A DNA stretch of 64,000 nucleotides from Bacillota bacterium (lineage in GTDB: Bacteria; Bacillota; Sulfobacillia; JAJZYS01; JAJYTV01), in contig JAJYTE010000002.1 of NCBI GenBank assembly GCA_021793215.1, positions 1-64,000 of the forward strand, given 5' to 3'. Position numbers and translations under genes: made by a program. A model generated the notes under the pieces. It was given only the letters and a program-made list of their open reading frames with translations, was not told where the DNA came from and made no database searches. Below, piece after piece: positions 1,693 to 42,023 of the stretch; the stretch's first letter is position 1, and the number at the start of each line of letters is the position of its first letter.

Positions 1693-1788
1693 GGGAACAG
1701 ATGGCCTGCTGGTGCAGCCCCTGGACTTCAAATCCAGCCGGCGGGCCTCACGGTCCGCGGTGGGTTCGATTCCCACCTGCTCCCGCCA
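1693..1788 (+). tRNA. selC: tRNA-Sec (anticodon TCA)
   Basis: Selenocysteine tRNA that decodes in-frame UGA. The acceptor stem is eight pairs long (GGGAACAG with CTGCTCCC, one A-C mismatch), discriminator G and encoded CCA at 1786-1788. The D stem pairs GGCCTGC-type bases across GGTGCAGCC. The anticodon stem-loop CTGGACTTCAAATCCAG has TCA at 1728-1730, as in E. coli selC. A long variable arm pairs GCGGGCC with GGTCCGC, and the T arm is GTGGG-TTCGATT-CCCAC. The 96-nt length, 8-bp acceptor stem, long variable arm and UCA anticodon together are diagnostic. It implies selA, selB and selD elsewhere in the genome. Confidence 0.96.
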
Positions 1789-40256: not shown

Positions 40257-41609
40257 TTAGCCGAGCAGATGCGGGAGCAGAATCGATGCGCCGAACGCAC
40301 CGTCCATCACGATCAACATGCCGACGATGCCGATGGCCGCGACGTTCTGCAGCCGGGTGTTTCGGTACTCGCCCATGACCTCGCGGTCGTTCACCAGCAG
40401 CAGCAGGAAGAGCAGCGCCGCCGGCATGAACACGGTCGCGAGCACTTGCACGACGACATTCAGGAAACCGAGCGGAGCGTTCGGGATGAGAACGACGAGG
40501 GCGGCGACGCTCGCCGCGATCACGCCGGGGAGGTAGAAGGCGATCGCATCACGCGGCTTCGCGTTCAGGCTGCGCACCTTCAAACCGAGCGCTTCGCCGG
40601 CGGCCCAGGAGGTGGAGGCGGTGATCGCCATCGCGGCGATCAGGCCGGCTTCTATGAGGCCGAGTGCGAAGAGCGACTGGGCGATCGGCCCGATCCTTCG
40701 GCCCACCGCCTGCAGGATCTGCGAGATGTTGAGGCCGTTCTGGCCGGGCAGGCCGTGCATGACGGTCGCGGCGAGGATGACGATCGCAACGGCCACGGCG
40801 CCCATCACGATCCCGCCAAGCAGTGTGTCGAGCCTGCCTAGGCGCATCTCGCGCGGCGAGAGACCCTTGTCGACCACGGCGGACTGCTGGAAGAACAGCA
40901 TCCACGGCGCGATGGTCGTGCCGAGGTTCGCGAGCAGTAGCATCAGGAAGCCGCTCGTCAGCCCGCCTTCGACTTGCCAGGTGCCGAAGCTGCGCGCCAC
41001 GGCGGACCAGTCAGGATGCGCCAGGAGGGCGAGCGGCACGAACACGATGTTCAGGAGCGCGATCCAAAGGGAGATCCGCTCCCACAGCCGGTAGCGGCCG
41101 ACCAGGGTGACGAGCAGGACGGCGGCGAGGCCGACGAGGACCCCGACGGGCAGCGGCACGCCGAACGCGTGCAGGCCGGCGCCGATCCCGATGAACTCCG
41201 TCACGAGCGTCAGCGCGTTGGCGATCACGAGGTCGACGGCGGAAAACGTCCCCCAGAAGCGGCCGTAGCGCATGAAGATCATCTCGGCGTGACCTCTGCG
41301 CGTCACGGCGCCGAGGCGTACCGTCATCTCCTGCACGACGAACGCGACCGGGATCATCAGCACCAGGAACGGGACGAAGAAACCGAGTCCGTAACTGGCG
41401 CCGGTCTGCGCGTAGGTGATCACGCCGCCGGCGTCGTTGTCCGCGATCATCACCAGGATCCCCGGTCCGAGCACGAGCAGGAGGATGCGCAGGCGCGCCC
41501 AAAGCCCGCCGGCCTCCCGGGCGCGGCGGATCTCGGCGCGGTCCTGGGCGCGTTGACGCACGTCCCGCGGCAGTGCTTCCTCAAGGGCACGAAGGTTCGA
41601 CGAGTCCAT
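40257..41609 (-). CDS. Nramp-related divalent metal transporter, probably Mg2+ (NRMT/NMgt-like)
   Basis: 450-residue membrane protein with about 11 helices of the Nramp fold. The helix-1 metal motif DPGN is replaced by D57-NDAG, and the helix-6 MPH motif is replaced by TIAPWMLFFQQS, so the Met that selects Mn/Fe is absent. Such Nramp-related proteins (for example NMgt in Clostridium acetobutylicum and EleNRMT) transport Mg2+. The upstream M-box riboswitch supports this. ATG at 41609 follows GAAGGGGG and is preferred over a long upstream open frame that crosses the riboswitch. Confidence 0.88.
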   Translation of the reverse strand: MDSSNLRALEEALPRDVRQRAQDRAEIRRAREAGGLWARLRILLLVLGPGILVMIADNDAGGVITYAQTGASYGLGFFVPFLVLMIPVAFVVQEMTVRLGAVTRRGHAEMIFMRYGRFWGTFSAVDLVIANALTLVTEFIGIGAGLHAFGVPLPVGVLVGLAAVLLVTLVGRYRLWERISLWIALLNIVFVPLALLAHPDWSAVARSFGTWQVEGGLTSGFLMLLLANLGTTIAPWMLFFQQSAVVDKGLSPREMRLGRLDTLLGGIVMGAVAVAIVILAATVMHGLPGQNGLNISQILQAVGRRIGPIAQSLFALGLIEAGLIAAMAITASTSWAAGEALGLKVRSLNAKPRDAIAFYLPGVIAASVAALVVLIPNAPLGFLNVVVQVLATVFMPAALLFLLLLVNDREVMGEYRNTRLQNVAAIGIVGMLIVMDGAFGASILLPHLLG

Positions 41610-41785
41610 GCGTTCGCCCCCTTCCCAGTCCGGCCTTGGGCCCTGGGGAAGCGGCGCGCGCAGCCCTGCCTCCCGGTTAGCGGAGGCGGCAGGGGAGGGA
41701 GGCCGGCCGTGCTGGCCCGCCCCGCGACACGCGGCGCTTCCTATACGGACTATCATCCGGCACGGCCGATCCCCCCTTTCAGACA

Positions 41786-41814
41786 TGAAAATCTGGGCGT
41801 GAGAACACGCCCAG
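41786..41814 (-). terminator. Intrinsic terminator of the M-box riboswitch
   Basis: On the minus strand, a nine-bp perfect stem CTGGGCGTG-TTCT-CACGCCCAG is followed by ATTTTC. It lies directly after the aptamer, where Mg2+ binding would favour termination. Confidence 0.8.
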
Positions 41815-41825
41815 CAGATGTTGGC

Positions 41826-41985
41826 GTCTTCTCGTAGAGCTTCAGCTCCGCGCGGCATAGGCGCCGTTCGGCGCCAGCCCTCTGGATCCGGCCTTGTTTC
41901 CGACCGGACCTGTTTCACCCGTGGGCATCTCTCGATGTTTCCGGGCAAGAGCGTGTCTCTCGCGGGTAGCCTCACCTAACAGACG
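41826..41985 (-). promoter_or_regulatory. M-box (ykoK leader) magnesium riboswitch
   Basis: Read on the minus strand, it contains the conserved M-box elements in order: CTGTTAGGTGAGGCT, GAGACACGCT, TGCCCGGAAA, GATGCCCACGGGT followed by AACAG, a variable helix, CTATGCC, and GCTGAAGCTCTACGA-GAAG. This matches the Bacillus mgtE leader block by block. Mg2+-bound RNA folds compactly and lets the downstream terminator form, so the transporter gene is made when Mg2+ is low. Confidence 0.93.
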
Positions 41986-41995
41986 ATCCAAGACA

Positions 41996-42023
41996 AATAT
42001 AGCACGCTAAGGCGCCAATGCAA
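41996..42023 (-). promoter_or_regulatory. Promoter of the M-box/transporter transcript
   Basis: Minus-strand TTGCAT (42023-42018), 16-bp spacer, TATATT (42001-41996). The predicted start near 41989 is just ahead of the aptamer. Confidence 0.7.

What the first reader, a model, noticed from the sequence alone, without database searches (positions are those of the whole stretch)
41786..42023. M-box Mg2+ riboswitch controlling an Nramp-related transporter
All conserved M-box blocks, a promoter and an intrinsic terminator are visible. The protein lacks the DPGN and MPH motifs of Mn/Fe transporters. It fits the Nramp-related Mg2+ importers (NMgt, NRMT), and riboswitch and protein evidence agree. 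The replacement DNDAG/TIAPWM defines a site worth structural study.
Basis: partly seen in the sequence, partly recalled or inferred. Interest (0 to 1): 0.72.

Follow-up and report, generated by a model that had tools for sequence, protein, structure and literature searches.

The report
Magnesium riboswitch plus hidden leader peptide
A real magnesium-sensing riboswitch sits in front of a magnesium-import gene, a pairing already known, but behind it lies an undescribed short leader gene whose start is conserved across acid-loving bacteria of several lineages and looks like a second magnesium-linked switch acting on translation.

Summary
An M-box aptamer (RF00380, 106.7 bits) lies at 41990-41820 on the minus strand. 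A terminator (41814-41793) and a competing antiterminator follow it. The gene it precedes (41609-40257) encodes an Nramp-related Mg2+ transporter (NRMT), closest to EleNRMT (7QIA). The M-box/NRMT pairing was described in 2014, and the 'DNDAG/TIAPWM' site is the solved EleNRMT site, so that part is ordinary.

Its N-terminus is conserved above NRMT genes in Bacillota (consensus MxSDPGGH), in Acidithiobacillus (MDSDP/MDSHP) and in acid-mine MAGs (MRSEPDSS), also where the M-box is absent. Synonymous changes in codons 2-9 are about twice expectation, in that frame only. A genome-wide motif search in 151 genomes gave 19 hits, all directly upstream of NRMT. The NRMT ribosome-binding site is predicted to be occluded. 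In two lineages the uORF's 3' part can pair with the occluding arm, as in Salmonella mgtQ.

Best reading: the M-box controls transcription and an mgtQ/MgtL-like aborting leader peptide controls translation. Mg2+ dependence of the peptide is inferred; in the window's own clade the motif is degenerate (MPDDSP) and the rescuing stem was not found.

The parts
41996..42023 (-). candidate promoter: TTGCAT - 16 nt - TATATT with TG before the -10
   Evidence: by inspection and coordinates; the consensus scan did not report it, so weak
41820..41990 (-). M-box (RF00380) Mg2+ riboswitch aptamer
   Evidence: 106.7 bits, gathering score 44, full-length; sole copy in the genome
41801..41833 (-). antiterminator: GAGAAGACGCC (41833-41823) pairs with GGCGTGTTCTC (41811-41801), the 5' arm and loop of the terminator
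   Evidence: fold of 41840-41796, -16.1 kcal/mol; coordinates; arms largely kept in 5 relatives
41784..41814 (-). intrinsic terminator (stem 41814-41793, then ATTTTCATG)
   Evidence: a terminator-like hairpin follows the M-box in nearly all of 36 M-box/NRMT leaders inspected
41771..41778 (-). Shine-Dalgarno of the uORF (AAGGGGGG)
   Evidence: near-invariant G-rich columns at -13 to -9 in 47 leaders; coordinates
41677..41763 (-). uORF (leader peptide), GTG start, MPDDSPYRKRRVSRGGPARPASLPCRLR, TAA stop
   Evidence: same position in M-box/NRMT leaders; synonymous excess in codons 2-9
41694..41775 (-). stem 1:2: uORF SD/start region (41775-41763) pairs with 3' part of the uORF (41705-41694)
   Evidence: RNAalifold on six relatives, coordinates
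41614..41654 (-). stem 3:4: hairpin whose 3' arm (41621-41614) overlaps the NRMT Shine-Dalgarno; 5' arm 41654-41647
   Evidence: RNAalifold (U-G/C-G and U-G/U-A exchanges); SD pairing probability 0.91 against 0.77 in shuffles for this clade
40257..41609 (-). NRMT (Nramp-related Mg2+ transporter), 450 aa
   Evidence: PF01566; EleNRMT best hit; tree; AlphaFold model nearest 7QIA

Best explanation
The locus is a Mg2+ importer gene (NRMT) under two stacked leader-RNA controls. Layer 1 (sequence and structure shown, response inferred from known M-boxes): with Mg2+ bound, the aptamer keeps the strand at 41833-41823 and the terminator forms; with little Mg2+ that strand pairs with the terminator's 5' arm and loop, and transcription continues. 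Layer 2 (ORF and its conservation shown, mechanism inferred): the read-through RNA carries a short uORF whose first 8-9 codons encode an acidic, usually Asp/Glu-Pro motif. Ribosomes are proposed to drop off or stall there when Mg2+ is low. The uORF's 3' part is then free and the NRMT ribosome-binding site opens. When Mg2+ is ample the whole uORF is read, the ribosome covers that part, and the NRMT site stays masked. Both layers would turn the importer on at low Mg2+. The translational layer is best supported in the Sulfobacillus-like and MRSEPDSS lineages. In the window's own clade the uORF, stem 1:2 and stem 3:4 are present but the rescuing 2:3 stem was not found.
For: M-box, terminator and antiterminator. 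NRMT identity. uORF coding: single-change codon pairs in codons 2-9 are synonymous 1172 times against 562.6 expected (47 leaders), and 2.17x in 15 representatives, the highest of 120 offsets. The window clade gives 20 against 5.0 and the MRSEPDSS group 73 against 16.5. Codons 12-20 show no excess. All 60 peptides have Asp/Glu in residues 2-7 and 53 also have Pro there. Specificity: 19 motif hits in 151 genomes, 19 of 19 just upstream of NRMT, including loci without an M-box. Outside the M-box set, 18 of 45 leaders have a motif uORF against 0.45 expected. 2:3 complementarity: z -4.5 to -7.1 in 10 of 10 MRSEPDSS leaders, and the same stem in most Sulfobacillus-like leaders. NRMT SD occluded more than in shuffles. 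Precedents: mgtQ, MgtL EPDP.
Against: No expression or Mg2+-response data. In the window's own clade the motif is degenerate (MPDDSP, MAADDHS, no Asp-Pro) and 2:3 complementarity equals shuffles (window z 0.14). Alicyclobacillus-like and Acidithiobacillus leaders also lack a 2:3 signal. Most peptides have a single acidic-Pro pair, weaker than EPDP. RNAalifold on the Sulfobacillus-like alignment gave little consensus energy, so that switch rests on per-sequence complementarity. Start codons were chosen partly by motif, and sequence pairs are not independent.
Confidence: 0.6

Rival explanations
1. Only the M-box regulates. The uORF is translated but its peptide has no Mg2+-specific role; conservation reflects efficient initiation or coupling that unmasks the NRMT start.
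For: In the window clade the motif is degenerate and no 2:3 stem was found. M-box/NRMT control alone works in C. acetobutylicum (PMC4072509).
Against: Selection acts on amino acids of codons 2-9, not merely on a start site. The uORF persists where the M-box is absent.
Confidence: 0.15
2. The uORF is an ErmC-like or amino-acid-type attenuator that senses something other than Mg2+ (charged tRNA, EF-P or EttA-type activity, pH stress), integrated with Mg2+ sensing by the M-box.
For: Conserved N-terminal motif followed by free sequence is the layout of ErmC-type and trp-type leaders. mgtM and mgtP in Salmonella respond to ATP and charged tRNA-Pro (PMC8092293). The close relatives found are largely from acidic habitats.
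Against: Acidic-Pro N-termini are the known Mg2+-linked destabilising type (MgtL, mgtQ). Association is with an Mg2+ importer even without the M-box.
Confidence: 0.15
3. The uORF product is a functional microprotein, for instance a partner of NRMT, co-expressed from the same mRNA.
For: N-terminal residues are conserved across lineages. The function of the Mtb M-box uORF Rv1805A is also open (PMC12810186).
Against: No selection beyond about codon 10, length varies from about 22 to 71 aa or runs into NRMT, and no hydrophobic segment was evident.
Confidence: 0.06
4. The conserved block is an RNA element rather than a peptide.
For: Codons 1-4 lie in stem 1:2, and an NTAGT/NTAGA nucleotide pattern recurs around codons 7-9.
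Against: Third positions vary freely while first and second positions are kept, in one frame only. No Rfam family reaches its threshold there.
Confidence: 0.04

Closest known systems
M-box/ykoK Mg2+ riboswitch (RF00380) with intrinsic terminator
   Same: Full aptamer, terminator and antiterminator in the ykoK order
   Different: No known difference in the aptamer; a further uORF layer follows
NrmT/NRMT Nramp-related Mg2+ transporters (C. acetobutylicum Ca_c0685; EleNRMT, PDB 7QIA)
   Same: M-box upstream (PMC4072509); DxxG and TxxA signature; NDAGG...GTTIAPWM shared with EleNRMT
   Different: A distinct subclade of genes from mostly acidic habitats, about 32% identical to EleNRMT in the structural alignment
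Salmonella mgtQ uORF upstream of mgtB
   Same: SD-led uORF with N-terminal acidic residues and Pro; 1:2 and 3:4 stems with the transporter RBS in 3:4; 2:3 alternative in two lineages
   Different: Longer peptides, first-gene leader rather than intergenic, different transporter and phyla, stacked behind an M-box in Bacillota; no homology claimed
MgtL leader peptide of mgtA (EPDP, intrinsic ribosome destabilization)
   Same: Acidic-Pro residues just after the start codon; MRSEPDSS holds EPD
   Different: MgtL acts through Rho-dependent termination (PMC11282234); here SD masking is predicted
Mycobacterium tuberculosis M-box uORF Rv1805A
   Same: Conserved uORF behind an M-box, N-terminally conserved with an invariant Pro (PMC12810186)
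   Different: Mycobacteria-specific, Rho-dependent and translational platform, peptide role unknown; sequences were not compared here

Membership tests
M-box riboswitch (RF00380) | sequence and structure match above curated threshold | tested here: met
   106.7 against 44 bits, positions 1-169
M-box riboswitch (RF00380) | expression platform linked to the 3' strand of the aptamer | tested here: met
   antiterminator against terminator
M-box riboswitch (RF00380) | Mg2+-dependent compaction and repression | not testable with these tools
   needs biochemistry
NRMT/NrmT | binding-site signature DxxG (TM1) and TxxA/T (TM6) | tested here: met
   D59-A-G-G62 and T231-T-I-A234, invariant in 20 homologues except I233; definition PMC8806188
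NRMT/NrmT | closer to NRMT than to canonical Nramp | tested here: met
   EleNRMT E 2e-53 against DraNramp 1.5e-16; best structural hits 7qia, 7qji
NRMT/NrmT | clades with EleNRMT in a tree, canonical Nramp outside | tested here: inconclusive
   grouped on the NRMT side, but with long branches
NRMT/NrmT | Mg2+ transport | not testable with these tools
   genome has no MgtE and no CorA hit, consistent only
mgtQ-like attenuating uORF | SD-led, translated uORF before the transporter gene | tested here: met
   SD and start conserved; coding signature; translation itself not observed
mgtQ-like attenuating uORF | acidic residues in the first codons | tested here: met
   60 of 60 peptides; window D3, D4
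mgtQ-like attenuating uORF | transporter RBS in stem 3:4 | tested here: met
   prediction only
mgtQ-like attenuating uORF | alternative stem 2:3 | tested here: not met
   window clade z about 0; met in MRSEPDSS and mostly in Sulfobacillus-like leaders
mgtQ-like attenuating uORF | translation abortion that raises transporter translation | not testable with these tools
   needs reporter or toeprint assays

The most novel reading that the evidence does not exclude
An undescribed leader-peptide element, MxS(D/E)P-type, senses low Mg2+ through the ribosome and controls translation of NRMT importers in acidophilic bacteria of several lineages. In Bacillota it is stacked behind an M-box, so one mRNA reads Mg2+ twice, once through RNA and once through the ribosome. 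It arose independently of, or was carried far from, the Salmonella mgtL/mgtQ systems.
Probability: 0.5. Interest if true: 0.75.

Novelty: new variant of a known kind. Interest (0 to 1): 0.6.

Why it matters
The M-box plus NRMT part adds one more member to a known pairing. The leader peptide, if confirmed, would take ribosome-based Mg2+ sensing beyond enterobacterial mgtL/mgtQ to a different transporter and to other lineages, suggest convergent use of acidic-Pro nascent chains, and show RNA-aptamer and ribosome sensing of the same ion on one transcript. It also predicts an annotation gap: short ORFs of about 22-71 codons upstream of NRMT genes, and gives a sequence handle for finding them.

Tried and rejected
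(1) N-terminal extension of NRMT: the frame is open through the leader in the window (572 aa ORF) but stops occur in relatives; rejected. (2) A second overlapping frame ending in TAG within the uORF: the substitution pattern fits only frame 0; not coding. (3) A 2:3 stem in the window clade, Alicyclobacillus-like and Acidithiobacillus leaders: no signal above shuffles. (4) RNAalifold on 19 Sulfobacillus-like leaders: only 12 pairs and -3 kcal/mol, probably because the alignment mixes subtypes. (5) The same uORF in distant NRMT or Nramp-like loci (33-47% identity): none found. (6) An Rfam family for the 3' leader: none near threshold. (7) Literature: no held paper contains both NRMT and 'leader peptide', nor the combination upstream ORF, Sulfobacillus and magnesium transporter; absence from this library is not proof of novelty.

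Full report
WHAT WAS CLAIMED AND WHAT IS THERE. The M-box is real. Infernal places RF00380 full-length on the minus strand at 41990-41820 with 106.7 bits (gathering 44), and it is the only one in this genome. A terminator hairpin CTGGGCGTG-TTCT-CACGCCCAG at 41814-41793 follows. The strand GAGAAGACGCC (41833-41823) at the aptamer's 3' edge can instead pair with GGCGTGTTCTC (41811-41801), which takes in the terminator's 5' arm and loop. The core of the terminator hairpin is invariant in five relatives. The promoter is weak: the consensus scan finds none, and TTGCAT-N16-TATATT with a TG is only by eye.

THE TRANSPORTER. The 450-aa product (41609-40257) is an Nramp-fold protein (PF01566). Among solved structures EleNRMT is far closer (E 2e-53) than Deinococcus MntH (1.5e-16). 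The residues DNDAGG and GTTIAPWM match the DxxG/TxxA signature that defines NRMTs (PMC8806188) and are essentially invariant in 20 relatives. An AlphaFold2 model (pLDDT 83) has 7QIA and 7QJI as its best fold matches. In the tree it lies with relatives from mostly acidic habitats, including Acidithiobacillus, Sulfobacillus, Alicyclobacillus and archaeal MAGs; the deep placement of EleNRMT suffers from long branches. The genome has no MgtE and no CorA hit, and P-type ATPase hits stay below the Mg2+-ATPase cut-off, so this gene may be a main Mg2+ importer. M-box control of such genes was reported by Shin et al. (PMC4072509). So far the finding is correct but known.

WHAT WAS MISSED. Between terminator and NRMT start lie about 180 nt. 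Comparing 36 M-box/NRMT leaders showed an ORF with a strong Shine-Dalgarno at a constant distance from its start. In the window it is GTG 41763 to TAA 41677, MPDDSPYRKRRVSRGGPARPASLPCRLR, 67 nt before the NRMT start. Relatives read MPDDSP (L003), MAADDHSRP (L004-L006), MSTDPGGHSRR (L034), MNTDPGGHRSQ (L044), MDSDPGSRR (L018), MEADPGGP (L048). Only the first 9 or so residues are alike; the rest and the length vary.

IS IT CODING? Among codon pairs differing by one base in codons 2-9, 1172 are synonymous against 562.6 expected in the uORF frame; the other two frames are near 1 and codons 12-20 show none. With 15 representatives under 80% NRMT identity the ratio is 2.17, the highest of 120 offsets tested. 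The window's six-member clade gives 20 of 27 against 5.0 and the MRSEPDSS group 73 of 83 against 16.5. Pairs are not independent and starts were picked partly by motif, so these are effect sizes, not probabilities.

IS IT SPECIFIC TO NRMT? A pattern for MxxDPGGH searched in 151 genomes of the class gave 19 hits against 1 for the reversed control. All 19 are followed within about 250 nt by NRMT. The pattern was learnt from some of these loci, but several hits are new, and three lie upstream of NRMT genes with no M-box. In the 45 related loci without an M-box, 18 have a motif uORF against 0.45 expected from shuffles: Acidithiobacillus MDSDPSC, MDSHPRW and MDSYPGR; acid-mine MAGs MRSEPDSS; Bacillota MSSDPGGHK. 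L066 (MQSEPDSS) is a further one with a weak SD. Distant NRMT-like loci showed none.

HOW IT MAY WORK. Folding shows the NRMT Shine-Dalgarno in a hairpin (3:4) and the uORF start in another (1:2). SD pairing exceeds shuffles in most leaders of every lineage: window clade 0.91 against 0.77, MRSEPDSS 0.90 against 0.67, Sulfobacillus-like 0.87 against 0.71. In all 10 MRSEPDSS leaders tested, the uORF's 3' half is strongly complementary to the masking arm (z -4.5 to -7.1). In most Sulfobacillus-like leaders the same happens with changed bases on both sides, for example CUUCCGAGGG/CCCUCGGAAG and CUUUCCCGA/UCGGGAAAG. This segment starts about 50-65 nt after the uORF start, beyond a ribosome halted at codons 4-8 but under one that reads on. 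This is the architecture of Salmonella mgtQ, where Asp/Glu codons abort translation and free the mgtB RBS (PMC8092293), and the motif resembles MgtL EPDP (PMC11282234). Hence the proposed mechanism: low Mg2+ causes abortion or stalling, 2:3 forms, and NRMT is translated. Shown: sequence, conservation, complementarity. Inferred: translation, Mg2+ sensitivity, direction. In the window's own clade 1:2 and 3:4 exist but 2:3 does not show, so by the strict mgtQ criteria membership is not met there, although it may still work alike. Acidithiobacillus leaders have a terminator-like hairpin after the uORF, perhaps a transcriptional version.

VERDICT. Observation confirmed, interpretation supported, core pairing known. 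The added value is an apparently undescribed leader peptide upstream of NRMT genes, in part stacked behind an M-box: a new variant of a known kind. A conserved uORF behind an M-box has a mycobacterial precedent of unknown role (PMC12810186).

Noticed in passing
G000:C36:50581-51777 (L085, L182): A second Nramp-related gene in the same genome (39% identity) with DTDAGS and VIMPWM in place of DNDAGG and TIAPWM; no SD-led uORF found and no M-box; an intermediate 'Nramp outgroup' type.
   Followed up: partly
L011, L019, L020, L065 (Acidithiobacillus leaders): The uORF (MDSDP/MDSHP/MDSYP) is followed by a GC-rich hairpin and T-rich stretch like an intrinsic terminator, suggesting transcriptional rather than translational attenuation.
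   Followed up: partly
L032 and L057 (Thermoplasmata MAGs), about 190-210 nt upstream of NRMT: Two archaeal relatives share an upstream ORF MSDEPPN(W/R)LFP... with acidic and Pro residues at the start.
   Followed up: no
uORF codons about 5-9 in most leaders: A nucleotide pattern NNT-AGT/AGA recurs (Ser there is mostly AGT, giving an out-of-frame TAG); unexplained, perhaps RNA structure or a stop for shifted ribosomes.
   Followed up: partly
window 1693-1784 (+): Selenocysteine tRNA (RF01852, 69.3 bits); implies selenoprotein synthesis in this Bacillota genome.
   Followed up: no
L087; L088 and L097: In the same class other M-boxes precede an ABC-type permease ORF (L087) and P-type ATPase-like ORFs (L088, L097), judged by eye from the translations.
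   Followed up: no
whole genome G000: No MgtE or CorA homologue detected in a 97.7% complete genome, which raises the weight of NRMT for Mg2+ uptake.
   Followed up: partly
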